Made by a program: the position numbers and the translations under genes
Shown: positions 15,766 to 49,574 of the stretch, one piece after another
Layout: each line of letters opens with the position of its first letter
Position numbering within the stretch: position 1 is the stretch's first letter
NCBI GenBank assembly: GCA_949372645.1
Contig: CASIAP010000009.1
Coordinates: 1-64,000 of the forward strand
Length of the DNA stretch: 64,000 bases
Direction of reading: 5' to 3'
Source of the DNA: Candidatus Poseidoniaceae archaeon
Lineage (GTDB): Archaea > Thermoplasmatota > Poseidoniia > Poseidoniales > Poseidoniaceae
The notes under the pieces: model-generated
The model's input: the letters and a program-made list of their open reading frames with translations, nothing else
Told to the model about the DNA's origin: nothing
Database searches by the model: none

Positions 15766-18700
15766 ATGCCTCCATCAGATGAAAAGAGTCAGAAACGAGG
15801 GTTTAACCCTCTTCTCGGTCTTGACATCGAACGACTCGAGGCTGAAATGGAATCATACCAGCAGTGGCTTGACGAGCATGCTGATGAAGCATATATTGTT
15901 GCAGAGCAAGCAAGAAAGCTTGGCTATGATCACAAAGAGTATGTGGAAATTCCGAGGGCAGCAGACCTTGCAGGAAGAACTGAAAAACTCCTCGTTGAAT
16001 ACTTAGATGGCTATGAAGTTGCAGACGATATTCGAAAACTCCTCGCTGAACACGACAGAGAATCGACCTCCATTATGATGGCTCAAAGTGTGGCACGCGG
16101 GTTCCGAGAACAAGGTCACGATTTAATTACGGCCATCGATGTCGGACTTCGAGTCGGTTTGGCGGTGTTAACAGAAGCTGTTCTAGTAGCGCCGCTTGAA
16201 GGGATCAGCGAAGTACGTCTCCTCAACAATATTGATGGCTCCCAATTCGTATCCGTACATTTCGCAGGGCCAATTCGGGCAGCAGGTGGAACGGCTCAAG
16301 CACTCGCAGTTCTGATTGCTGATATGATACGCCGAGAACTCAACATTGGCCACTACCAGCCTACAGACCCAGAAGTTGAACGTGTCAAAGAAGAATTTGG
16401 ACTCTACAGGGGCAATTTACAATACCGCCCATCACCCGAAGAAATCGAGGAAATTGTGCGTGCATGCCCGGTAATGATCAATGGCGAATCAACAGAAAAA
16501 ATTGAATGTTCAGGGTATGGGCGAGTTCGCAACATCGATGAAGCACGAATTCGCGGCGGTGTTTTACTTGTCATCGGGGAAGGGATGTGTCTGAAGGCAC
16601 CGAAGATTCAAAAGCATACTGAACGGCTTAACGTTCCGGGATGGGACTTCATCTCAAAGTTTGCCTCAAAAGGTAAATCCGATGACGACCAAGGCGACGG
16701 GCCCCGATTTAAATCCCGCAAAGTACCGACAATCACGAAATTTATGAAAGATATTATCGCCGGAAGACCTGTTTTTGGCGCACCACTCCAACCGGGTGGT
16801 TTTCGTTTACGATACGGCCGAGCACGCCCCTCTGGGCTAGCAGCAGCATCAACCAACACAGCCTCTATGTTGGCAATGGATGACTTCATCACCATCGGAA
16901 CCCAGATGAAAATCGAACGTCCGGGAAAGGCGTGCGCTATCACCCCGTCCGATGATACCGATGGGCCTTGGGTAGTCTTACGAGACGGCCGTTTCCTTCG
17001 CCTTGATGATGCAAAGAGTTACACAGCCATCTGCTCGAAAGTTGGCTCCGTATGGGATAATGGTGAACTTGTGATTGGTTATGGCGAATTTATGGAGAAT
17101 AACAAAAACCTGGTTCCTGCAGGTTATTCGAATGACTGGTGGGCAAGTGATTTGCTTGAAGAATTAAACTCCGATGCTGCCGTTTCTGAATTCGCCGAAC
17201 TCATCGAACAAACGCGCTCTTCGTTTCCAAACGGTGTTCCTGGAATCCATCCCGAAGATGCAGAAGACCCTGGCCAACAATTCCACGTTCGCAGGAAATG
17301 GCATGTGTTCTTAGCGGCTTGCTCGGTTAACTGGGAGCAAAGTAAAGCCGTTGCACTCCGATTCAAGACATCTATCCCAGCACCTCACAACCCCTGGTTC
17401 CTCGACCTGCCGGTAGAATGGGTGCCTTCGGTTTTAGAAATGCTCGAGCAAGCAACGATCGAACCGTTTGGAACATCAAACACCCCCCTCCTCGAAATTG
17501 AAGAACATCTTCAAGCCATGCCACTCAATGAAAAGAGGCAACTCAGAATCCGTGGCGGGGTGAAGAATTGGACTCCAGAGACAATGGATTTGCTAAGGCC
17601 TGAAACACTTGATAACTTAGAAAAATTTGAGATTCCCGGTTTGAAATTACAACCAATCAAGCCCATTTTTACCAAAGAATTGCCAGAGGCATGGGCGTAT
17701 ATTCAACACGGACTTGCCAAGGGCGCTGCAATGATTTTGGGGCTACGCCACCATCATGATGGCAATGACCTCGTGATCACCTCCGGTTGGCCAGCCTTAC
17801 TCGAAGGCTTTGGATTTGGAGATGAAGATGAAAAACCTCTCCGAATCGTCGATGCGAAAACTCGTTTCACAGAACGGATCGACCAATTACGCCAATGCCA
17901 AATCACCCTTACCGAGGAGCGTCAAAGAATCGAAGAACTTCGCCAAGCGCGTGCAACTGTCCGCATTGCAGCGGAAACAAACGCCCGACAGCGAGGACTC
18001 GGCATAGCCGATACGGATGAAGTTGGCCGACAAGCAGCAGCCCAAGTTCTCGACCCCGGGCCAGCAGACCCGCAACAGTATCTTGCTGCTCAAATACACG
18101 AAGACGACCACGATGTCGATGGAATTATGTTACAAGTTCGAAAAATCTCAAATTTACGTTGGGAACACGCTGCACCGGTCCGTATTGGTTGTCGAATGGG
18201 GCGGCCAGAAAAGGCCGCTCCGCGAGTCATGAATCCAATGACTCACGCTCTTTTTCCAATTGATTTGAATGGTGGTAATCAAAGATTATTGGCCAATGCT
18301 GCTGCAAAACAAAGTATCCGGGTACAAATGGGTCGTCGAATATGCAAGAAATGTGGCAAAGAGTCTCCTTTCATCCTCTGTCATCACCGAAACACCGATT
18401 CCGATGGAGTTGAATTGGCTGGCAACACGTGCGGTGGCCGTACTAAAATGCGCGAATCTGGAAACACAAAGCGTCGAAGAAGAGGTGAAATTCAGACGGT
18501 CCGTTTGGACACGATGATCGAAGATGCCCGCATACGATTAGGCCTCGACCGAATTCCGCGCCAAGTCAAATGCATGAAACAAATTGCAAGTAAAGATCAA
18601 ACGCCAGAAGCCATTGAAAAAGGCTTGCTGAGAGCCAAACACCAATTGCCAGTATTCCGCGATGGAACGGTCCGGTTTGATATGAGCGATGTACCTATTA

Positions 18701-19887
18701 CGCATTTTACTCCACGAGAGATTGGTGTTTCTTGGCAAACGCTTCAAACGCTTGGCTATGCCACAGATTGTGAAGGAAACGCCCTTGAAAACGATGAACA
18801 AATGCTCGAAATATTCCCACAAGATTTCATCGTCAGCAAAAACGCCTGTGATTTCTTCGTCCGTACTGCACAATTTATCGATGAACTCCTGGTTCGATAT
18901 TATGGAATGGAGCCGTTTTACAACGTCAATACGGCTGATGATTTAGTTGGGCATTTAATTTGCGCTTTAGCTCCTCACACATCCGGCGGCGTATTGAGTC
19001 GAATCATTGGTTGGGCCGATTGTTCAGGCGGATATGCGCACCCGTTATTCCATGCCGCTAAACGAAGAAATTGTGATGGTGATGAAGACGCTATCATGCT
19101 CTTAATGGATGGTTTACTCAACTTTAGCCGGGAGATCTTGCCGGCCAATCGAGGTGGTTTGATGGATGCGCCCCTCGTTTTGACGACGAGGCTGAATCCA
19201 ACTGAAGTTGATAAAGAAGCCCTCAACGTCGATTCCGGCTGGTTCTACAGCCGGGACTTTTACGAAACCACTCTTTCACAACCACATCCCAAAGAATGTG
19301 CAGAACGCATGGATTTTGTTGAACGCCGTCTTGGTTCAGTTGCTGCGGTACGTGGCTATGGATACACCCATGACTGTTACGCTCTCGACCAAGGCCCAGC
19401 TCTTTCAGCCTACAAAACACTGGATACCATGATTGACAAAATGAATGGACAATTAGATCTGGGACACCGTCTTCGTGGAGTCGATGTTCGAACTGTGGCA
19501 TCAAGTGTTGTACGCTCTCACTTTTTACCTGATTTACGGGGCAACCTCAATGCATACGGGCGTCAAAAAATCCGCTGTCTGAAATGCGCTCATTCGTATC
19601 GTCGTATGCCTGTAGCAGGGAACTGTATCCAACCAAAGAAAGAATCGGGCAGAGGACTTACAAGCGTTGGCGTAGCAAAATCCGAAGGCGGATTATGTGG
19701 TGGCAACCTCGCACTGACTGTTTCAGAAGGCGCGGTTCGCAAATACATCAAGGTCACAAAGCACGTAATGGCGAAGTATGGTGTCGATAGTTATACCAAG
19801 CAAAACGTCGAATGGTTGTCCGATAGTGCAGACTCACTGTTCAACAACGACCGAGCCAAACAACTTTCACTGGCAGACTTCCTCTAA
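15766..19887 (+). CDS. polC: archaeal DNA polymerase D large (catalytic) subunit DP2
   Basis: 1373 residues, the catalytic subunit of the euryarchaeal replicative polymerase PolD. Features in order: N-terminal DP2 region; GGTAQALAVLIADMIRREL and YRPSPEEIEEIVRACPVMIN; LRYGRARPSGLAAASTNTAS; a zinc-binding cluster near 858 (CKKCG..., then C-H-H and C-G-G); the catalytic core near 1101-1145 (NCDGDEDAIMLLMDGLLNF, then RGGLMDAPLVLTTRLNP), with the acidic residues of NCDGDED intact; and a second zinc site near 1270 (CLKCAHSYRRM...C). The last residues KQLSLADFL fit a PCNA-interacting PIP box (QxxLxxF-type). The catalytic motif is uninterrupted, so no intein is present there. DP1 is not in the window. 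The ATG follows AAGAGGCAAGAG. Confidence 0.96.
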   Translation: MPPSDEKSQKRGFNPLLGLDIERLEAEMESYQQWLDEHADEAYIVAEQARKLGYDHKEYVEIPRAADLAGRTEKLLVEYLDGYEVADDIRKLLAEHDRESTSIMMAQSVARGFREQGHDLITAIDVGLRVGLAVLTEAVLVAPLEGISEVRLLNNIDGSQFVSVHFAGPIRAAGGTAQALAVLIADMIRRELNIGHYQPTDPEVERVKEEFGLYRGNLQYRPSPEEIEEIVRACPVMINGESTEKIECSGYGRVRNIDEARIRGGVLLVIGEGMCLKAPKIQKHTERLNVPGWDFISKFASKGKSDDDQGDGPRFKSRKVPTITKFMKDIIAGRPVFGAPLQPGGFRLRYGRARPSGLAAASTNTASMLAMDDFITIGTQMKIERPGKACAITPSDDTDGPWVVLRDGRFLRLDDAKSYTAICSKVGSVWDNGELVIGYGEFMENNKNLVPAGYSNDWWASDLLEELNSDAAVSEFAELIEQTRSSFPNGVPGIHPEDAEDPGQQFHVRRKWHVFLAACSVNWEQSKAVALRFKTSIPAPHNPWFLDLPVEWVPSVLEMLEQATIEPFGTSNTPLLEIEEHLQAMPLNEKRQLRIRGGVKNWTPETMDLLRPETLDNLEKFEIPGLKLQPIKPIFTKELPEAWAYIQHGLAKGAAMILGLRHHHDGNDLVITSGWPALLEGFGFGDEDEKPLRIVDAKTRFTERIDQLRQCQITLTEERQRIEELRQARATVRIAAETNARQRGLGIADTDEVGRQAAAQVLDPGPADPQQYLAAQIHEDDHDVDGIMLQVRKISNLRWEHAAPVRIGCRMGRPEKAAPRVMNPMTHALFPIDLNGGNQRLLANAAAKQSIRVQMGRRICKKCGKESPFILCHHRNTDSDGVELAGNTCGGRTKMRESGNTKRRRRGEIQTVRLDTMIEDARIRLGLDRIPRQVKCMKQIASKDQTPEAIEKGLLRAKHQLPVFRDGTVRFDMSDVPITHFTPREIGVSWQTLQTLGYATDCEGNALENDEQMLEIFPQDFIVSKNACDFFVRTAQFIDELLVRYYGMEPFYNVNTADDLVGHLICALAPHTSGGVLSRIIGWADCSGGYAHPLFHAAKRRNCDGDEDAIMLLMDGLLNFSREILPANRGGLMDAPLVLTTRLNPTEVDKEALNVDSGWFYSRDFYETTLSQPHPKECAERMDFVERRLGSVAAVRGYGYTHDCYALDQGPALSAYKTLDTMIDKMNGQLDLGHRLRGVDVRTVASSVVRSHFLPDLRGNLNAYGRQKIRCLKCAHSYRRMPVAGNCIQPKKESGRGLTSVGVAKSEGGLCGGNLALTVSEGAVRKYIKVTKHVMAKYGVDSYTKQNVEWLSDSADSLFNNDRAKQLSLADFL

Positions 19888-19978: not shown

Positions 19979-20554
19979 ATGGACGAAGCAACGCTCGTAT
20001 TGAATATTATTCTCTATGTCCTTTTACCACTTTGGGGAATAGCTAGTATGCTTGATTGGTGGTGCCATAAAAAAACCAACATTGAATCTACATCCGGTTT
20101 GCGTGAAGCAAATATCCATTGCCTGATGGGTGCTCAAATAGGGCTTCCGTTGGTTCTTTCTCTTGTTTTTGAAGTCAATGTGTTGATTCTTCTTCTTTGT
20201 TTTGCTGCTCTCGTCGCCCATGAATTCATCGCTCACTACGATGTTCACTTTACGACTGGCAAAAGAGAGATCAGCATTTGGGAAGTTCACGCTCATAATT
20301 ACTTGGCCACCTTACCGTTCTTCCTCATGCTGCTGATCGTTGTTCGGAAATGGGAAGTTTTCCTCGATTTGATTCGCTTGAATTGGGCCGGTGGATTCTC
20401 TATGCAGTGGCGTCAAGAGCCTTTGGGTGCAACAGGCAATTATGCAGCCGTCTACATCACTACAATGTCGATCTTAGTGGTTGGGCCTTATGCTCAAGAA
20501 TGGTGGCGTTGTTGGTCATATGAGCGAAATCTTGCCAAGGAGGCGACGAAATGA
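19979..20554 (+). CDS. His-rich polytopic membrane protein, putative membrane metal enzyme
   Basis: 191 residues with about five hydrophobic helices. It carries conserved-looking polar motifs within or beside the helices: LDWWCHKKT (about 25), HEFIAHYDVHF (about 81) and EVHAHNYL (about 102). The His and Glu/Asp positions facing one side of the membrane recall the metal sites of membrane hydroxylases and desaturases, though spacing is not that of the classical three His boxes. Similar DWWCH...HE...WDV...HxH proteins occur in bacteria as uncharacterised membrane proteins. It is the first gene of the acyl cluster, and its stop overlaps the KAS III-like ATG (ATGA). RBS is AAAGGGGAT. Function is inferred from context only. 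Confidence 0.7.
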   Translation: MDEATLVLNIILYVLLPLWGIASMLDWWCHKKTNIESTSGLREANIHCLMGAQIGLPLVLSLVFEVNVLILLLCFAALVAHEFIAHYDVHFTTGKREISIWEVHAHNYLATLPFFLMLLIVVRKWEVFLDLIRLNWAGGFSMQWRQEPLGATGNYAAVYITTMSILVVGPYAQEWWRCWSYERNLAKEATK

Positions 20555-21687
20555 CAGTTTACATTACCAGCACAGGATCTTTTTTACCAGGTCCAGCAAT
20601 CACAGTTGACCAAGTCGAAAATGTACTTGGCGCTGTCAACGGCAAACCTTCTTCTCTTCGTGTCCAAATTCAAAAAGCGAATAAAATTGAAACACGCCAT
20701 TATGCAATTGATGAACAACAACAAACAACACACAGTAATACTGAGATGGCAACAAATGCCGCAGAGCAATGCCTTGACCGCGGTTTCGTCCACCGAGAGA
20801 AAATAGGTATGTTGGCCGTAGCTTCAACACAAGGCGACCTCCCCGCTCCGGGAATGGCAAGCATGGTGCAAGCAGAATTGGAATTGCCTGAAATAGAAAT
20901 TCTTACGACACATGGAATCTGCTCTTCCTCAATTATGGCGCTGAAAGCAGCTTGGAACAGTTTGCGCCTTGAAGAGCATGATGCAGCCCTTGTTGTCTCC
21001 AGTGAATTAGCCAGCCGCCTTCTCAAAAAACAACGCTATGAGGCTGCAACCACCTCAACGTTTGCTGCAAAACGTATCGATTTCAGTACAGAATTCCTCC
21101 GGTGGATGCTTTCTGACGGTGCAGGGGCGCTCTTGTTACAAAACAAACCCGCTCCCAAAGGTTTCAGTTTACGCATTGATTGGATTCGAGGCTTTTCACA
21201 CGCACACGCACTCCCTACTTGCATGAGCGTTGGTTCAGCAGGACGCCCAGAAGACACTCGAACTTGGCAAGATTATGACACCTATGCAGAAGCAGAACAA
21301 GACGGCGCCCTCCTCCTTCGCCAAGACGTCCGCCTCCTCGACAACCTCATGCGAATGGGCGTCGATGGCTATCTTCGATTAGTCGAAGAAGGTGTGAGTA
21401 AACCCAGAGAAGTCGACCACTTTTTGTGCCATTACTCAAGCCACCACTTCCGAAATAAAATTCTTGAGATGCTCGATACGGCAGGTGCCGGCATACCTGA
21501 AGAGAAATGGTGGACCAATCTCTATACACGCGGAAATACAGGTTCTGCGTCTCTCTTCATTATGCTTGATGAATTCTTGCGTACTGATGAAGTAACAGTA
21601 AAAGAAGGGGACAGAGTCCTCTGTTTTGTTCCAGAAAGTGGGCGTTTTAATACGACCTATCTGCAACTAACGGTGGTGAGTGAATGA
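20551..21687 (+). CDS. 3-oxoacyl-ACP synthase III-like (thiolase-fold) condensing enzyme
   Basis: 378 residues. The KAS III fold is recognisable from the N-terminal VYITSTGSFLPG, the nucleophile-elbow region LTTHGICSSSIMALKAAWNS with the catalytic Cys at residue 124, a His in FLCHYSSHHFRNKI (near 293) and an Asn in RGNTGSASLFIML (near 328). Thus the Cys-His-Asn triad used for decarboxylative Claisen condensation is intact. Substrates may be ACP- or CoA-linked acyl chains; ACP and FAS genes are not in the window. Related enzymes include FabH and OleA-type head-to-head condensing enzymes. It overlaps both neighbours by 4 bp within the acyl cluster. Confidence 0.85.
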   Translation: MTVYITSTGSFLPGPAITVDQVENVLGAVNGKPSSLRVQIQKANKIETRHYAIDEQQQTTHSNTEMATNAAEQCLDRGFVHREKIGMLAVASTQGDLPAPGMASMVQAELELPEIEILTTHGICSSSIMALKAAWNSLRLEEHDAALVVSSELASRLLKKQRYEAATTSTFAAKRIDFSTEFLRWMLSDGAGALLLQNKPAPKGFSLRIDWIRGFSHAHALPTCMSVGSAGRPEDTRTWQDYDTYAEAEQDGALLLRQDVRLLDNLMRMGVDGYLRLVEEGVSKPREVDHFLCHYSSHHFRNKILEMLDTAGAGIPEEKWWTNLYTRGNTGSASLFIMLDEFLRTDEVTVKEGDRVLCFVPESGRFNTTYLQLTVVSE

Positions 21688-22433
21688 ACGATGGTGAAAT
21701 TTCAATCGAAGGAGGGGGGACTGCCCCTGCAGAAGAAAGCACAACCGAAGGCGTCGTATTGAATCCGCATGCCCAAGTTTGTCTTCAACAACTACTGCGA
21801 GTTTGGCTCGGCTTTGAACGAGACTTATCCAAAGTACCTCTTCTTCGCCGCATTGACCTTGGTACCTATACAGTCGAAGACCATCAAATATTTTTGAGAA
21901 ATATCCGCCAACAGGTCATCGAAGGTTCTCGTTGGATTACACGAACTGCAAGTAGTTTTGACCGTGACCATTCCGAAATCCGTTCGACGATCATCAGTCA
22001 CGCTGTTGATGAACATCGTGATTATGAAATGCTTGAAAAGGATTATGTGGCATCCGGCGGTCAACTTGAAGACATCCTCAATATGGAACGTAATATTGGT
22101 TCAGAAGCCTTACATGGCTTCCTCATGCATCGTTCCTCCCGTCCAAACCCAATTGACTTGCTCGGCGCAATGTGGATCATTGAAGGCCTTGGAGAAAAGA
22201 TGGCGAATTCTTGGGCTGAGCGGATCCAAGAACTAACAGGTCTTTCCGGAGATTCAACACGCTTCATGACCTACCATGGAGAAAATGACAGTGACCATAT
22301 GCAGCGTTTTTATGCAACTTTGGACAGTGTTTGCATCAATGAAGAAGCAATTGAAAGTATTGTGAAAACATCCAAAGTCGTTGCCCGACTCTATCGATTA
22401 CAATTGGAGGAAATAGAATATGACATCCAGTGA
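21684..22433 (+). CDS. heme-oxygenase-fold diiron-type oxidase (iron-containing redox enzyme family)
   Basis: 249 residues, mostly helical, with a disordered ~30-residue N-terminus. The core resembles the TenA/PqqC/heme-oxygenase-like superfamily, in which many members bind two irons (HDO proteins). Candidate ligands lie in SHAVDEHRDYEMLEKD (near 112-126), GSEALHGFLMH, IIEGLGEKMANSW and YHGENDSDHMQRFY (near 193-206). The last motif, with H, D and H spaced by three residues, is typical of the helix that supplies metal ligands. HDO members include UndA, which converts fatty acids to terminal alkenes, so an oxidation of an acyl chain is plausible here. It overlaps the KAS III-like gene and the downstream gene. 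Confidence 0.75.
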   Translation: MNDGEISIEGGGTAPAEESTTEGVVLNPHAQVCLQQLLRVWLGFERDLSKVPLLRRIDLGTYTVEDHQIFLRNIRQQVIEGSRWITRTASSFDRDHSEIRSTIISHAVDEHRDYEMLEKDYVASGGQLEDILNMERNIGSEALHGFLMHRSSRPNPIDLLGAMWIIEGLGEKMANSWAERIQELTGLSGDSTRFMTYHGENDSDHMQRFYATLDSVCINEEAIESIVKTSKVVARLYRLQLEEIEYDIQ

Positions 22434-23343
22434 ATCAGCATTATCTCGGAAAGAGCAACGCGCTCAACGACGCCTTGCTAAAGCACTCGCTAAAAATCAT
22501 GGAAGAATGCCAGCATCACTGAGCGATGCATTGAGTGGTGATGACAGCCTTCCTTTGGATTTAGAAGCAAAAGAATACTGGCTCAAAGATTTGCAAAACC
22601 CGTTACGAGTGGTCATTTTACCAACCTTGAAAATCCTCCTCAGCATCACCCTTCACATCACCTATTACCTCAAACGACTGTCACCAATTCAATGGAGGGC
22701 GCACAGATTCCTTCAATGGCAGATTTGCTTTTTCATGAAACACTTCGTTCGACCAGAAGCCAATATTTTGATTCTCCGGCATTTTCAAACCGAGAGTAAT
22801 CTGCTGAATTTCGTGATTGATAATTCTGGGAAAGAAGGCGTAGAACCTGTTCTCATTTACCCGAAAGTCATTCGAGACCTCATGGTTCAGACATTCGTCC
22901 ACCACGACCAAGGCGTCTTGATGACCATGCGCGATTTAGGCGAGATGAAAGGCGAAAATTGGCCAATCGCTGAAGAGGAGCTACAATGGACAAATTGGAC
23001 CCCCGTCGACATCCAATATTCACCTTCTCGAAAGAAATGGACACAATTCCTTGATTTTGAAACAGCTCATGAATTGTTCAAAACGACGTTCTGCTTTTGG
23101 CTGACAGCCAAAGAATACGAGGCAGCCATCAACTCGTTTCAATTCGACCATTCAGTCGGTTTGCGCATTGATGAAATCGTTGGAGCTGCACATTTTGCAG
23201 ATCTTGCCCACAACCGTTTCCCAATGATTCTCGTTGGGCCAACCGGCCTTTCTTATCGATTCCTTATGCATGGCTTTTTTGTCGAACACGCCCATGCACA
23301 TCTCGAAAGAATGCGAACCCAATTGGGGTTGAAGAATCGATGA
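22420..23343 (+). CDS. uncharacterised protein of the acyl cluster
   Basis: 307 residues; not recognised with confidence (possibly the DUF6999 family). The N-terminal ~40 residues are basic and Ala-rich (RKEQRAQRRLAKALAKNHGR). A hydrophobic stretch VVILPTLKILLSITLHITYY lies near 65-85, and the rest looks soluble or peripheral: KHFVRPEANILILRHFQTES NLLNFVIDN near 105-130 is probably a conserved core, and the C-terminus is His-rich (MHGFFVEHAHAHLER). It overlaps the HDO gene by 14 bp and its stop overlaps the desaturase ATG. A membrane-associated role with its neighbours is inferred from the operon only. Confidence 0.6.
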   Translation: MTSSESALSRKEQRAQRRLAKALAKNHGRMPASLSDALSGDDSLPLDLEAKEYWLKDLQNPLRVVILPTLKILLSITLHITYYLKRLSPIQWRAHRFLQWQICFFMKHFVRPEANILILRHFQTESNLLNFVIDNSGKEGVEPVLIYPKVIRDLMVQTFVHHDQGVLMTMRDLGEMKGENWPIAEEELQWTNWTPVDIQYSPSRKKWTQFLDFETAHELFKTTFCFWLTAKEYEAAINSFQFDHSVGLRIDEIVGAAHFADLAHNRFPMILVGPTGLSYRFLMHGFFVEHAHAHLERMRTQLGLKNR

Positions 23344-24089
23344 TGTACAGTCATCTGATCGTTTGGTACATCTTCATTGGCCTTGGAGTTTCACTTGGCA
23401 CCCATCGTTTGATTTCCCATAACTCCTTTCGATCAAATCCAGTACTGAAGTATCTCTTGGTTTACGCTGGAACGCCGGCTGGGCCACCAATTCAATGGGC
23501 GCTGAACCACCGTATCCATCACAAAACGACGGATACGGCAGACGACCCCCACTCTCCGTATTTTGGTGGCTTTTGGCATGCACATTGCGGCTGGTATCTC
23601 CCCACAAGCAACACCATAGCCGCCATATTGTATGCTATAGCAGGGCCAATTCGCACTATGATTGACCCTTTCATCTGGAAAAGTTTTCCAGAAGAATTAC
23701 CAAAGGATTTGGATAAGCCATTGTTGAAATTCATGAGCCGCAGACCAGTGAATTTCATACTTGCATTGTCCCATCTTTTCCCATTCTATTTCTTCTATGT
23801 TGAACTCGGATGGTTCGGTATTGCTCTTGGCTGGTCGATTACAGTATTGTTTTACAACATTGGTGACTCAATTAATTCAATCTCTCATTTGGTTGGTTCA
23901 CGGGACGATCCAAACACCCAAGCTCGTAATTTCTTGCCAAGTGCAATGCTCACGATGGGTGAAGGAAACCATGCAGAACATCACCGAACTCCAGGCAATG
24001 CAAATTTTGGAGGTTTTGACATTGGTTATCTTTTCTTACGAATAATGAAATTCATTCGAATGGTTAAGCTGAAGCCTCATCAAGACTGA
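23340..24089 (+). CDS. acyl-CoA/fatty-acid desaturase (delta-9 type, membrane diiron)
   Basis: 249 residues with four likely membrane helices and the three histidine boxes of membrane desaturases: HRLISH (22-27), HRIHHK (about 58-63) and EGNHAEHH (about 209-216). The pattern and short length resemble the stearoyl-CoA desaturase family (GTHRLISHNSF; WALNHRIHHKTTDTADDPHS). The reaction is O2-dependent introduction of a cis double bond into an acyl chain using a diiron centre and an electron donor. It is the last gene of the five-gene cluster, overlapping the previous stop, and converges with the GST-like gene 2 bp away. Such an enzyme is unexpected in an archaeon unless acyl lipids or other long chains are present. 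Confidence 0.88.
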   Translation: MMYSHLIVWYIFIGLGVSLGTHRLISHNSFRSNPVLKYLLVYAGTPAGPPIQWALNHRIHHKTTDTADDPHSPYFGGFWHAHCGWYLPTSNTIAAILYAIAGPIRTMIDPFIWKSFPEELPKDLDKPLLKFMSRRPVNFILALSHLFPFYFFYVELGWFGIALGWSITVLFYNIGDSINSISHLVGSRDDPNTQARNFLPSAMLTMGEGNHAEHHRTPGNANFGGFDIGYLFLRIMKFIRMVKLKPHQD

Positions 24090-28143: not shown

Positions 28144-30324
28144 TTGCAGCCAACAAACCCGTATCTACCCCCCCAGACTCCTCCGGAGCCGAGAACCGAA
28201 GGTGCTCAGTGGGCGAATGCTAGAGATTCTCACCCCGGATATGGAGGTGCTCAGAGAATTATTTCACAGCAACCCCCATTGAATATTACGCCAGCAGGTA
28301 TGCGAAATAGTCCGAGCTCGGGCGTTGCAGGAATGTATTTCCCCCCGGCAAAAAGACCTTATGACCTCTCTTATTTGTCTCAAACCCATAAAGAGAGTCT
28401 GAAAAATCATAATCTGAAGATGTCCATCATTCCATTGACAGTCATATTTGGACTATTCGCTATTGGCTGGGCTTGGCTCTTCGGTATTGCAGCTTATTTT
28501 TGGAGCGTATGGATCTTATTACGTCATCGTTCAATTTTTATAAAACTGCCTCGAATAGAATCAAGAACACATATGCCTTCATGGCTTGGTTGGCTCTCTT
28601 TAGTACCTCTTCTAAATTTCCTCATAATTCCGTTCTCTCAAGATGAATTAAGGCGTCAATTGAACCTTCAATTCAGTTTAAGAGAGAAGATGCTTCCATT
28701 TTCAAGGGGCCCGATCATTGGCGCAGCATGGACCCAATCCCTTTCCATTCTCCTCGCCTTGCCAATTATTATTACCATAATCTCCTATGAATCATTAAGG
28801 GAGTGGTGGGTATCAATAATTAGTTTGCTTTGGCATATCCCAATTGTTTTGATTTCCATCGCTACCCTCGCCTTTTTGCTTCATGTTACCAACAAGTCAC
28901 AAAAGAGTTGGTGGCCGAATAAACACAATGAATCGAAATCCGGAAGAGACCTAGTTGGGGTCACAACGGTTCCATTATTAGTCACAATCATCAGTATTTT
29001 TATTATGACAATGATCATTCTTCCAATATTTGGAGGAGATTGTACTTCCAGCTGGGAGAACGACTACAGCTGCAGCTACTTTGATGTTGGATGGCAAATG
29101 CAAGTGCGAATCTTTTTCCCTTGCGCTTTTGCAGTTCTATTTGGCCTGAATACAAGAGTAGATGATTCCAAACAAAAGAATCGTAGAGGAAGGGTTTATG
29201 CGCTATACTCCGCTTTGATTGCATTATTTGCCTTCGTCCCATATATCTCCTTGGTAACAACGTTCACTTCGATTGCCCTAATGGTTGCAGCATTTGTTTT
29301 GATAATAATTGTAGAAGTTTTGATTGGAGTGTCTGTGAATAACCTCTGCCGAGAGTCGAGTAATTTTTCAAATCAAACAGTGTTCACGCTGCCACCTCAA
29401 ACTGCAGCACCTCAAGCCCCAGCCTCTCAAATATACCCCCAACAGGTTCAACCTGTTCAAATGGATGAATTGACGAAGACAAGGAAACGATTTACAAGAA
29501 CTCAGATGTTTGCTAGCGGGGGAATGGCAGCAGTATTTCATTGCAAAGATAATGCCGATGGCTCGACGAAAGTTTGGAAACAAGCTCAAGGCGAACATAT
29601 CCCTCTCAATGATGCCAATAAGCGATTAAAATTTGAGGCTGAAGTATTGATGGCTGCAAATCACCCTCGAATTCCAACATATTTCGGATTTACCGATGTA
29701 GAGAACGATGATGGAAAAGATGAAAATGTTTTGATAATGGAATACTTAGAAGGTGGGGATTTGAAGGCCACAGTTGCTCAAGTATCGAAAGTAGGATTGT
29801 CAATGCCAACAGATACGATCATCGATTATCTCAAAGCAATGTGCGAACCTTTGGTTCATATGGCTTCTTTCTCCGAACCTATTTATCACCGTGATTTGAA
29901 ACCACATAATGTCATAATTCACCCGACTCGGGGACCAGTAATCATTGATTGGGGTCTTGCCAAAGCAGTACAAGGTGGATCGGATATCTCAGTAACTCGT
30001 GGAGGGTCAGGGACTTGGACTTCTCCAGAAAGAGATTCTGGAATTTCAGGCTCTTTTACAGATGTGTACAGTCTTGGAAAGGTTCTCTATTATCTCGCAA
30101 CATGTAAACAACCCCCTGCAATTATTTCTACTGCCGAGAAGGATGAAATGATTTCATCAGGGCGCCCTATTTGGCTTGCAGAGTTAATGATTAAATCTTC
30201 ATGGCCGCGCCACCAAGAAAGAATTCAAACAGTTAAGGCGTTTTTAGGAGTATTGGAAAATCAAGGTGAAAGCCCAGCTGTAGAGCAGCCTGCAGAATCC
30301 GATGATTTCACAACATGGGGCTGA
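28144..30324 (+). CDS. membrane-bound Ser/Thr protein kinase (Hanks type)
   Basis: 726 residues from a TTG preceded by GGTGAAA; an ATG 156 bp downstream is an alternative. The N-terminal ~60 residues are Pro-rich. A block of about eight hydrophobic helices spans ~95-410. The kinase domain is C-terminal (about 450-705): ASGGMAAVFHC (Gly loop), TKVWKQ (likely Lys), FEAEVLMAANHPRIP (Glu of helix C), YHRDLKPHNVII (catalytic loop near 582), then I-D-W-G in place of DFG (near 602), TWTSPERDSG (APE-like) and DVYSLGKVLYYL. All catalytic residues needed are present. The kinase is followed 4 bp later by a PP2C phosphatase, so they are probably a reversible phosphorylation pair. Confidence 0.88.
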   Translation: MQPTNPYLPPQTPPEPRTEGAQWANARDSHPGYGGAQRIISQQPPLNITPAGMRNSPSSGVAGMYFPPAKRPYDLSYLSQTHKESLKNHNLKMSIIPLTVIFGLFAIGWAWLFGIAAYFWSVWILLRHRSIFIKLPRIESRTHMPSWLGWLSLVPLLNFLIIPFSQDELRRQLNLQFSLREKMLPFSRGPIIGAAWTQSLSILLALPIIITIISYESLREWWVSIISLLWHIPIVLISIATLAFLLHVTNKSQKSWWPNKHNESKSGRDLVGVTTVPLLVTIISIFIMTMIILPIFGGDCTSSWENDYSCSYFDVGWQMQVRIFFPCAFAVLFGLNTRVDDSKQKNRRGRVYALYSALIALFAFVPYISLVTTFTSIALMVAAFVLIIIVEVLIGVSVNNLCRESSNFSNQTVFTLPPQTAAPQAPASQIYPQQVQPVQMDELTKTRKRFTRTQMFASGGMAAVFHCKDNADGSTKVWKQAQGEHIPLNDANKRLKFEAEVLMAANHPRIPTYFGFTDVENDDGKDENVLIMEYLEGGDLKATVAQVSKVGLSMPTDTIIDYLKAMCEPLVHMASFSEPIYHRDLKPHNVIIHPTRGPVIIDWGLAKAVQGGSDISVTRGGSGTWTSPERDSGISGSFTDVYSLGKVLYYLATCKQPPAIISTAEKDEMISSGRPIWLAELMIKSSWPRHQERIQTVKAFLGVLENQGESPAVEQPAESDDFTTWG

Positions 30325-30328
30325 TTAA

Positions 30329-31075
30329 ATGAGTGCAGACCGTGTATTCGTAGATCTCTCAGGAGTCGATGCAACTTCGTTGAAAGGAAAGCGGCCAAAA
30401 GATGAAGATTATATCATCGCTTCTTCAGTTCAAAACAGAATTGAAGTCGCTGTAATCTTAGATGGCATGGGTGGAGGCGCTGCTGGGGAGAAAGCATCAG
30501 AATACGGGGGAAAAGCCTTTGTTGAATCAGCGAGTCTCTCGAAACTAACATCTGTGAAATCACGAAGAAAATCTTTGAATCTTTGCATCAAAGCTGCAAA
30601 TCTTGCAGTCGATAACATTTCTACAGAACACAAGTCAAGGAGCGGCTCTACCATAACGGCGATTCTTGTAAAAAGGGGAAAGAAAGGGTCAATTAAATGG
30701 GCAGTAATGGCGCACGTAGGCGATACACGTGCTTATCGAATAAGGGATGGAGAAGTAACCTTGTTGAGCCAAGACCACTCAATGACGGGTGAAATGGTTC
30801 GAGCAGGATATATCGAACTTCATCAAATCGAAGAAACTCATGGGAAAAATGTACTCACAATGTCGCTTGGCGGGCCAGACGAATTGAACCCTCAAGTTGA
30901 AGAGGTTGAACTTACAAACGGCGACATAATTATGCTATGCTGTGACGGAGTTTGGGGGCCATTGCATACTGAACAAGGAATGGAAGTCAAGTCGCTTTCC
31001 TCTATCGAAATCGCCAATGAAGCATTAGCACGAGGAAGTACAGATAATTGCAGCATACTATTCTGGACTTTGTGA
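30329..31075 (+). CDS. PP2C-family protein phosphatase
   Basis: 248 residues. The PP2C/SpoIIE metal-dependent phosphatase motifs are in order: VAVILDGMGGGAAGEKASEY (metal Asp in DGMGG), AVMAHVGDTRAYRIRDGEVT (GDTR), LSQDHSMTGEMVRAGYI, and IMLCCDGVWGPL (metal Asp). TDNCSILF near the end supplies the last conserved D-N. It removes phosphate from Ser/Thr, probably on targets of the adjacent kinase, in the cytoplasm. It starts 4 bp after the kinase stop. Its 3' end overlaps the convergent helical-repeat gene by 18 bp. Confidence 0.92.
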   Translation: MSADRVFVDLSGVDATSLKGKRPKDEDYIIASSVQNRIEVAVILDGMGGGAAGEKASEYGGKAFVESASLSKLTSVKSRRKSLNLCIKAANLAVDNISTEHKSRSGSTITAILVKRGKKGSIKWAVMAHVGDTRAYRIRDGEVTLLSQDHSMTGEMVRAGYIELHQIEETHGKNVLTMSLGGPDELNPQVEEVELTNGDIIMLCCDGVWGPLHTEQGMEVKSLSSIEIANEALARGSTDNCSILFWTL

Positions 31076-48124: not shown

Positions 48125-49574
48125 GATTTGCTTGACGAGCTAACAATACGATTTTCATACTGTGCTCCAGCATTGCGGCATTGGCCCATGCTTGGTCAAG
48201 GTCAGCACCAACGGCGTAAGCTCCCATGCCACGAACCACGACGCACCGCATGCTACCTTGCTTGAGTGCCTCTACGGTTTGGCGCAAGAAATTATCAGGG
48301 TTGTCTTCATCTGGATCAACGATAATGACCTTGCCAATCTGTTCCTTCCCAGTTACATCAATTGGTTGAACAAGTACCAAATCTTTCTCGCTACTGACTG
48401 CCGTTGTACAAGCGCCATATGAATGAATTACTGCAGCAGGCCCTCCAGTGACGATACTGATGGAGGCAAGAATTACTTCCATGACTCTCCAATCTGTAGG
48501 GGCGCCACGAGGGGGGGTTGCTTGTCCAAGCAGGCCAGCACATAGACCGCGCTCATCAAGACGAGGTAGCATTGTGCGGTTACGCGTGGAAATCATAATG
48601 CTCAGGTTTTCTGGGTGAAGCATAGCAATCGTACCCATTGTGGCACGAATCAATTGTTCACGATCGAGTTGTCGAGCAAGTCGAGCAAAATCGCCAACGA
48701 TGTATGCACCAATGACGATGTCTTCGATGACTGCTGGAGGCATTGGTGGGTTTTCGAGTTCTTCAATAACGTCGGCAGCGCCTGCCATCGACTGTCTCAA
48801 ACGTTCAACTTCAGCGTTAAGACGAGCAATTTCTTGTTCTGCAATCATATGTTGCTCATCAAGTTCAGGTTGAACCTCTTCAATCTCTAATTCTTCAACC
48901 TGGTTGGTAACCGCTTCTTCAACAATGGTATCTTCTTCCACTGGAGTATCTTCCTCTACAGGTGCCTCAGGTACTTCTTCCCGATTCAACTCTTCAACTT
49001 CGATAGGGTTTGGTGTGGCTTCAGGAACCTCTTCAACTTCCGGTTCTTGAGGAATTTCTTCTTCAACATTCTCTTCGACTTCTGAAGGCCCTGATGGGGG
49101 CCCTGATGGAGGGCCTGGTGGAGGGCCTGGTGGAGGGCCTGGCGGAGGGCCTGGCGGAGGGCCGGAAGGACTTGATGGAGATTTTGACGGAGGGCCTGAT
49201 GGAGGGCCAGACGGGGGGCCTGGTGGAGGGCCGGAAGGATTTGGTGGAGATTTTGGCGGAGGGCCAGACGGTGGACCTGACGGGGGGCCAGATGGCGGAC
49301 CTGTTGGGGATTCAAGAACTTCATCTTCAACTTCTTTTTCGTCTTCGAGAGGTGCTTCAATATCTTGCGGCGTTTCAATTTCTTCAACGGCTTTAACCAC
49401 AGGTTGTTCTTCAACGACCGGTTCTTCAAGAATCTCAGTAGTTTCAATGACTTCATCTTCAGGAGCTTTTTGGAGGCCTCCAAGATCTCCAAACGCGGCA
49501 TCAAGTAGATTCCCAACCTGGGCATCTTTTTGCTCTTCTTTTGTTTGTTCAGCAGATGTTTTCTTTCCCGCCAT
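48114..49574 (-). CDS. class II aldolase/adducin-like domain with long acidic and Pro-rich N-terminus
   Basis: 486 residues. Residues 1-85 are acidic (Glu/Val-rich), ~88-164 consist of G-P-P-S/P tripeptide-like repeats, and ~165-250 is again acidic and Glu-rich. A short coiled coil follows (EQEIARLNAEVERLRQSM, near 255). The C-terminal ~210 residues look like the class II aldolase/adducin fold: LDERGLCAGLLG, RVMEVILASISIVTGGPAAV IHSYGACTTAVS and CVVVRGMGAYAVGADLDQAW ANAAMLEHSMKIVLLA. The zinc-binding H-x-H is H-S-Y here and the later His is Met in G-M-G, so metal binding is doubtful. It may be a structural or regulatory protein. Confidence 0.7.
   Translation of the reverse strand: MAGKKTSAEQTKEEQKDAQVGNLLDAAFGDLGGLQKAPEDEVIETTEILEEPVVEEQPVVKAVEEIETPQDIEAPLEDEKEVEDEVLESPTGPPSGPPSGPPSGPPPKSPPNPSGPPPGPPSGPPSGPPSKSPSSPSGPPPGPPPGPPPGPPPGPPSGPPSGPSEVEENVEEEIPQEPEVEEVPEATPNPIEVEELNREEVPEAPVEEDTPVEEDTIVEEAVTNQVEELEIEEVQPELDEQHMIAEQEIARLNAEVERLRQSMAGAADVIEELENPPMPPAVIEDIVIGAYIVGDFARLARQLDREQLIRATMGTIAMLHPENLSIMISTRNRTMLPRLDERGLCAGLLGQATPPRGAPTDWRVMEVILASISIVTGGPAAVIHSYGACTTAVSSEKDLVLVQPIDVTGKEQIGKVIIVDPDEDNPDNFLRQTVEALKQGSMRCVVVRGMGAYAVGADLDQAWANAAMLEHSMKIVLLARQANLKI
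49082..49312 (-). repeat. in-frame GPP tripeptide-type low-complexity repeat
   Basis: A tract of GGGCCTGG/GGCCAGA-type 12-nt units (GGPGGG/GGPSGP in translation) encodes Gly-Pro-Pro with Ser, Lys and Phe variations. It sits in the linker of the aldolase-like protein. Units are imperfect. This is intragenic expansion and not a mobile element. Confidence 0.7.

What the first reader, a model, noticed from the sequence alone, without database searches (positions are those of the whole stretch)
19979..24089. Five-gene acyl-modification cluster in an archaeon
Seen in sequence: five same-strand genes, each overlapping the next by 4-14 bp, encode a His-rich membrane protein, a KAS III-like enzyme with Cys-His-Asn triad, a heme-oxygenase-fold protein with candidate diiron ligands, an unknown protein and a three-His-box desaturase. 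Established: KAS III enzymes condense acyl thioesters, HDO enzymes such as UndA oxidise fatty acids, and desaturases need O2 and a diiron site. Inference: the cluster builds or modifies an unsaturated or oxidised acyl product, unusual for an archaeon with isoprenoid ether lipids, and probably came from bacteria. It is the best candidate in this window for an undescribed pathway.
Basis: partly seen in the sequence, partly recalled or inferred. Interest (0 to 1): 0.85.

Follow-up and report, generated by a model that had tools for sequence, protein, structure and literature searches.

The report
Mobile ketosynthase-diiron lipid gene cassette
A compact set of four adjacent genes, usually joined by a fifth (a desaturase), is shared in the same order by marine archaea and several bacterial groups and looks like an undescribed oxygen-dependent pathway that joins and then oxidises two fatty chains.

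Summary
The five overlapping genes are real. Genome comparison splits them into a four-gene core (membrane protein M1, StlD/DarB-type ketosynthase, haem-oxygenase-fold diiron-type protein HDO, DUF6999) and a swappable fifth slot. The core order is invariant in all 24 Poseidoniales genomes found with DUF6999, in about 30 Gammaproteobacteria and in some Myxococcota. In other bacteria the ketosynthase and HDO are fused into one protein beside DUF6999, so they very probably act on the same intermediate. Slot 5 holds one of two unrelated membrane desaturases. Each type forms its own cluster-specific clade spanning archaea and bacteria. The archaeal sequences are monophyletic, consistent with one bacterial origin. 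The ketosynthase triad is intact. The HDO keeps five of six usual ligand positions, with a constant His-to-Asp change. M1 and DUF6999 have no solved relatives. My best reading is that the ketosynthase joins two acyl thioesters, probably into a dialkyl-cyclohexanedione or resorcinol-like ring, and that the HDO, DUF6999 and desaturase oxidise it. The product is inferred, not shown. I found no paper describing the cassette. An extra finding is that most Poseidoniaceae encode a PfaA-like multi-ACP synthase, so acyl chains are not foreign to these archaea.

The parts
19979..20554 (+). M1: 191-aa multi-helix membrane protein, core gene 1. Invariant polar residues include H30, H47, H81, H86, H104, H106, D26, E36, E43, E82, D88, E102, E174.
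   Evidence: 43-sequence alignment; AlphaFold2 pLDDT 91.6, pTM 0.83; no PDB fold match; no Pfam family. Standalone homologues in Pantoea, Erwinia and Burkholderia plasmids.
20551..21687 (+). KS: StlD/DarB-type ketosynthase, core gene 2; catalytic C124, H294, N329.
   Evidence: PRK06816 StlD/DarB family, 380 bits, cut-off 450; StlD 5gk0 E 7e-71 against 3e-9 for FabH; triad conserved incl. distant members; tree.
21684..22433 (+). HDO: haem-oxygenase-fold, diiron-oxygenase-type protein, core gene 3. Invariant E110, D113, E167, H198, D202, H205 and H106.
   Evidence: PF14518 34.7 bits, cut-off 28.9; 21-sequence alignment; alignment to 3dde: D113 stands at the usual ExxH His. Fused to the KS in L156, L157, L189-L192.
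22420..23343 (+). DUF6999 protein, core gene 4, helical. Conserved R120, H121, H162, D163, D212, N238, D243, H284, E289.
   Evidence: PF22523 299 bits; AlphaFold2 pLDDT 83.3, pTM 0.80; no solved relative.
23340..24089 (+). DES: acyl-CoA-desaturase-like membrane desaturase (HRLISH, HRIHH, HAEHH boxes) in the accessory slot 5.
   Evidence: Adjacent in 11 of 44 archaeal loci, replaced by a different PF00487 desaturase in 21. Cluster DES form one clade with Myxococcota cluster DES.

Best explanation
This is a horizontally spread biosynthetic cassette for an oxidised lipid-like metabolite. SHOWN: a four-gene core with fixed order, KS-HDO fusions beside DUF6999, cluster-specific desaturases, and cross-domain spread. 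INFERRED: (1) acyl thioesters come from the PfaA-like ACP synthase of Poseidoniaceae or from beta-oxidation; (2) the StlD/DarB-type KS joins two of them, most likely a 3-ketoacyl with a second acyl or 2-enoyl unit, giving a 2,5-dialkylcyclohexane-1,3-dione or related branched diketide; (3) the HDO, taking the KS product directly, carries out an O2-dependent oxidation (dehydrogenation/aromatisation, hydroxylation or oxidative decarboxylation), doing work that the separate aromatase DarA does in known pathways; (4) DUF6999 is a further helical, possibly metal-dependent tailoring enzyme; (5) the desaturase (in some bacteria also a fatty acid hydroxylase) unsaturates an alkyl chain; (6) M1 acts at the membrane, perhaps as another metal enzyme.
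For: Invariant order M1-KS-HDO-DUF6999 in 23 further Poseidoniales loci and 31 bacterial loci plus Pseudoalteromonas plasmid pTHAF3_a. KS and HDO are one ORF in L156, L157 and Myxococcota L189-L192, next to DUF6999. Desaturase inside or beside the operon in archaea, Myxococcota (L100, L189, L191, L192, L195) and L156; both desaturase types are cluster-specific clades, 100/99 support. KS scores 380 bits with the StlD/DarB model against 83 for FabH-type and keeps its triad. HDO passes PF14518 and keeps most ligand positions. Cluster-bearing archaea have an ACP-containing synthase, enoyl reductase and PPTase.
Against: The KS is below the StlD/DarB cut-off (380 of 450) and no DarA-like gene was recognised beside it, so ring formation is extrapolated. 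The HDO lacks the usual His of ExxH, so its metal centre may differ. The window's own genome gave no ACP hit, though it is only 84% complete. DUF6999 and M1 functions are unknown. Some DUF6999 genes lie without a KS (L158, L198).
Confidence: 0.45

Rival explanations
1. Linear head-to-head route: the KS acts like OleA, condensing two acyl chains to a beta-keto acid, and the HDO decarboxylates or cleaves it (UndA-like) to a long-chain ketone or alkene, which the desaturase unsaturates: a hydrocarbon or ketone membrane lipid.
For: HDO enzymes such as UndA decarboxylate fatty acids (established knowledge). Recurrent membrane desaturases and fatty acid hydroxylases point to long alkyl chains. Many hosts are marine and polar (titles).
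Against: The KS is clearly StlD/DarB-like by profile, structure match and tree, a family known for cyclising. No OleB/C/D-type genes were recognised in the flanks examined.
Confidence: 0.25
2. A plain dialkylresorcinol/DarB pathway of the known kind, in which the HDO or DUF6999 simply replaces DarA.
For: KS family; DarA needed for aromatisation in known pathways (general knowledge).
Against: Profile scores are below both curated cut-offs (380/450 and 325/550); StlD and the Bacteroidota sequences branch apart from the cluster KS (moderate support); the further conserved proteins are not explained.
Confidence: 0.15
3. The cassette modifies existing membrane or storage lipids, or detoxifies oxidised fatty acids, with the KS in an acyl-transfer or chain-length role; no new natural product is made.
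For: Membrane proteins M1 and DES; DUF6999 carries a hydrophobic helical hairpin (sequence, helices); GST gene next door in the window.
Against: KS-HDO fusion and intact triad fit biosynthesis better; the GST gene is next to the cassette only in the window's closest relatives.
Confidence: 0.15

Closest known systems
StlD / DarB ketosynthases (dialkylresorcinol, stilbene, flexirubin pathways; NCBIfam PRK06816, PDB 5gk0)
   Same: Full-length homology, Cys-His-Asn triad, GNTGSAS motif, Glu of the SE motif.
   Different: Below the family cut-off, own branches in the tree, no DarA partner seen, and instead linked or fused to an HDO and paired with DUF6999.
Haem-oxygenase-like diiron oxygenases (UndA, SznF, BesC, MboA, PolF; Pfam PF14518)
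   Same: PF14518 match; E110, E167, H198, D202, H205 align with the usual ligand positions.
   Different: The His of ExxH is Asp in every sequence, with an extra invariant His four residues upstream of the Glu; found fused to a ketosynthase.
Acyl-CoA desaturases (PF00487; nearest solved: mammalian desaturase 4ymk)
   Same: Three His boxes, same fold family.
   Different: Forms a cluster-specific clade apart from the housekeeping desaturases tested.
OleA / PfaA-OleABCD polyunsaturated hydrocarbon pathway
   Same: Thiolase-fold enzyme joining two acyl chains in organisms with Pfa-type synthases.
   Different: KS is not OleA-like by profile; no OleBCD recognised; HDO and DUF6999 instead.

Membership tests
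StlD/DarB ketosynthase family | Score above NCBIfam PRK06816 cut-off (450 bits) | tested here: not met
   380 bits, E 1e-113; DarB exception model 325 of 550.
StlD/DarB ketosynthase family | Catalytic Cys-His-Asn triad and closer to StlD than to FabH | tested here: met
   C124, H294, N329 conserved in the 78-sequence alignment; StlD E 7e-71 against FabH 3e-9; a long branch separates the FabH-type rows.
Dialkylresorcinol (DarABC) cluster | DarA aromatase encoded with DarB | tested here: inconclusive
   None recognised among window neighbours scanned with NCBIfam or annotated near pTHAF3_a; no DarA model was searched genome-wide.
Haem-oxygenase-like diiron oxygenase (HDO) | PF14518 above gathering score | tested here: met
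   34.7 bits, cut-off 28.9.
Haem-oxygenase-like diiron oxygenase (HDO) | Six canonical ligands, including His of ExxH | tested here: not met
   E110, E167, H198, D202, H205 kept; Asp113 at the His position in all 21 aligned sequences. Metal binding itself not testable here.
Membrane fatty acid desaturase PF00487 | Family score and three histidine boxes | tested here: met
   56 bits, cut-off 29.7; HRLISH, HRIHH, HAEHH.
DUF6999 (PF22523) | Score above cut-off | tested here: met
   298.6 bits, cut-off 27.
OleABCD hydrocarbon pathway | OleB, OleC, OleD genes with OleA | tested here: inconclusive
   Not recognised in the flanks examined; no dedicated genome-wide search made.
StlD/DarB ketosynthase family | Cyclising condensation of 3-ketoacyl and 2-enoyl thioesters | not testable with these tools
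   Needs enzymology.

The most novel reading that the evidence does not exclude
A previously undescribed, cross-domain biosynthetic pathway in which a ketosynthase hands its two-chain product directly to a variant diiron oxygenase (ExxD site), and DUF6999 and M1 are two new enzyme families (possibly metalloenzymes), giving abundant uncultured surface-ocean archaea an oxidised, unsaturated, non-isoprenoid lipid or signal.
Probability: 0.4. Interest if true: 0.88.

Novelty: new variant of a known kind. Interest (0 to 1): 0.72.

Why it matters
Marine Group II archaea are among the most abundant uncultured plankton, and no acyl-derived specialised metabolite is known to me from them. The cassette also occurs in culturable bacteria (Rheinheimera, Pseudoalteromonas, Shewanella, Alkalimonas), so the product can be found now by deleting or expressing four genes. 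It offers a ketosynthase-HDO fusion, a variant HDO site and two protein families with no known fold. With the PfaA-like synthase it bears on whether these archaea make fatty acyl chains.

Tried and rejected
No-ACP argument: the window genome gave no ACP hit and I first inferred CoA-only substrates; rejected when ten cluster-bearing relatives all had tandem ACPs. The ACP synthase as a partner specific to the cassette: rejected, since it is present in 83 of 146 Poseidoniales, far more than the 24 with DUF6999. DUF6999 as a divergent HDO: weak fold hits to PolF and AetD, but profile comparison found no relation. M1 as a known membrane enzyme: no Pfam family, solved sequence relative or fold match (one irrelevant hit). 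Contamination of the archaeal bin: unlikely, as the cassette lies 91 bases after the DNA polymerase D gene (15766-19887) near archaeal RNA polymerase subunit D, S4, S11 and S13 genes, with the polD flank kept in other genomes. Viral carriage: no viral contig encoded a relative. First desaturase tree misread minus-strand ORFs and was redone; one FabH row (L141) is a wrong ORF. Literature: nothing for DUF6999, nor for Poseidoniales with such a cluster.

Full report
OBSERVATION. The five ORFs are present as described, on the + strand with overlaps of 4, 4, 14 and 4 bases. They begin 91 bases after the end of the DNA polymerase D large-subunit gene and end 2 bases before a convergent glutathione-S-transferase-like gene. 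The flank holds archaeal RNA polymerase subunit D, ribosomal proteins S4, S11 and S13 and pyrE, so the cassette sits in an archaeal core region.

WHAT THE PROTEINS ARE. Gene 2 scores 380 bits with the StlD/DarB ketosynthase model (cut-off 450) against 83 for the FabH-type model, and E 7e-71 to solved StlD against 3e-9 for FabH. The triad C124, H294, N329 is conserved in the 78-sequence alignment that includes distant members. Gene 3 passes PF14518. In its 21-sequence alignment H106, E110, D113, E167, H198, D202 and H205 are invariant; aligned to 3dde, D113 stands where the His of the usual ExxH motif is expected. Gene 4 is DUF6999; its AlphaFold2 model is essentially all-helical (pLDDT 83.3) and matches no solved structure. 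Conserved His/Asp/Glu residues lie on or at the ends of five different helices, which suggests a buried active site; that is inference, as I had no coordinates. Gene 1 is a membrane protein with six invariant His and seven invariant acidic residues, a confident model (pLDDT 91.6), and no known fold or family. Gene 5 is a three-His-box desaturase.

THE UNIT. A Pfam search of 146 Poseidoniales genomes found DUF6999 in 24, all in one family. In every one of the 23 other loci the order M1-KS-HDO-DUF6999 is kept. A scan of 84,980 species genomes returned 75 loci, 44 archaeal and 31 bacterial, with the four genes in the same order wherever the contig reaches. That scan was seeded with DUF6999 motifs of this subgroup, so it shows order conservation but does not measure frequency. 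The bacteria are Rheinheimera, Arsukibacterium, Alkalimonas, Vibrio rumoiensis, Shewanella, Endozoicomonas, Reinekea, Gynuella, Cellvibrionaceae, Granulosicoccaceae, unnamed Gammaproteobacteria and one Myxococcales. The same four genes lie on plasmid pTHAF3_a of Pseudoalteromonas. Bacterial flanks are otherwise unrelated between lineages, so these four genes are the unit.

FUSION AND PARTNERS. Wider Pfam-based surveys found DUF6999 in 7 of 369 genomes of the class of Rheinheimera and 22 of 195 of the phylum of the Myxococcales locus. In 14 of 18 neighbourhoods read there, a KS lies next to DUF6999; the exceptions are L158, L197, L198 and L199, two of them (L197, L199) on partial matches. In L156, L157, L189, L190, L191 and L192 the KS and the HDO are one continuous reading frame, confirmed by both Pfam domains on one protein for L156 and L191. 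In L189, L191 and L192 a desaturase 38-42% identical to the window's DES lies between KS-HDO and DUF6999. L156, L191 and L192 add a fatty-acid-hydroxylase homologue, PF04116 in L156. In archaea the slot after DUF6999 holds DES in 11 loci, a different PF00487 enzyme in 21, nothing in 8, and cannot be read in 4 (my count). A careful tree of 52 desaturases puts 13 cluster DES in one clade spanning archaea and Myxococcota, with one further member (L229) from a genome that carries the core on another contig, and all 10 of the second type in another clade spanning archaea and bacteria, apart from the housekeeping desaturases of the same genomes. Two unrelated desaturases recruited to one slot is strong evidence that chain desaturation belongs to the pathway.

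ORIGIN. In a concatenated KS+HDO+DUF6999 tree the archaea form one clade (100), the Gammaproteobacteria another (100), with Myxococcota lineages beside them and the fusion group outside (root at midpoint, some long branches). One transfer from bacteria into Poseidoniaceae is the simplest reading, but direction is not proven. Archaeal copies sit at different places (after polD, after ribonucleotide reductase, elsewhere), so the cassette also moved or was lost and regained within the family.

SUBSTRATES. The window's genome (84% complete) gave no ACP hit, but all ten cluster-bearing relatives tested have ACP domains, nine of them two to four, in one long ORF. In L238 this ORF of 3045 aa has KS-AT-4xACP-KR-DH and scores 926 bits with the PfaA model (cut-off 1010), between a FabI-type reductase and a phosphopantetheinyl transferase; the set is conserved in five more genomes. 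It is near-universal in the family, so it is a likely acyl supplier but not a specific partner. Beta-oxidation genes are also reported to be widespread in these archaea (PMC9723583).

MECHANISM. Shown: gene linkage, fusion, active-site conservation, cluster-specific desaturases. Inferred: the KS joins two acyl thioesters as StlD/DarB do; the HDO, fused or co-translated with it, oxidises the product with O2; DUF6999 and M1 tailor or anchor; the desaturase acts on an alkyl chain. The ring is extrapolated from family membership that is just below the curated threshold. Rivals are given separately.

NOVELTY. No paper in the library mentions DUF6999, and I found none describing such a cluster in Poseidoniales. 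The parts are variants of known kinds; the combination, the KS-HDO fusion and the two unassigned families look undescribed. Absence from this open-access library is not proof.

Noticed in passing
L238:8169-18875 (-), same set in L239-L243: A PfaA-like megasynthase (KS-AT-4xACP-KR-DH, 3045 aa) between a FabI-type enoyl reductase and a phosphopantetheinyl transferase: an apparently self-contained fatty-acyl or PUFA-type synthase in Poseidoniaceae. ACP hits in 83 of 146 Poseidoniales genomes.
   Followed up: partly
G000 (window's own genome): No ACP domain found although nearly all relatives have the tandem-ACP synthase; missing sequence or true loss is undecided.
   Followed up: partly
L229 (G692:C37): A desaturase of the cluster-specific DES clade on a different contig from the M1-KS-HDO-DUF6999 cluster (L193) of the same genome.
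   Followed up: no
L161:1437-2358: Decayed copy: a KS fragment and a DUF6999 gene broken over several frames, suggesting loss of the cassette.
   Followed up: no
L158:7889-9912: DUF6999 without KS or HDO, next to transposase-like ORFs.
   Followed up: no
L053:6974-7531, L054:7001-7552: M1 homologues (about 36% identity) stand alone on large plasmids of Pantoea, Erwinia and Burkholderia, often annotated as diguanylate cyclase or hypothetical, near efflux or oxidative-stress genes.
   Followed up: no
L055:4862-8396: A different HDO operon (thermostable-hemolysin-like, AMP-binding, HDO, SDR) on a conjugative Vibrio plasmid; HDO hits annotated as AMP-binding protein recur on Pseudoalteromonas plasmids.
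   Followed up: no
L164:5989-7131; L163:7989-9125: StlD/DarB-type ketosynthases on Bacteroidota plasmids next to a TetR regulator, without HDO.
   Followed up: no
window 49086-49303: Gly-rich tandem repeat array (12, 24 and 69-base periods) inside an ORF.
   Followed up: no
window 28144-31075: Ser/Thr kinase-like ORF followed by a PP2C-type phosphatase ORF.
   Followed up: no
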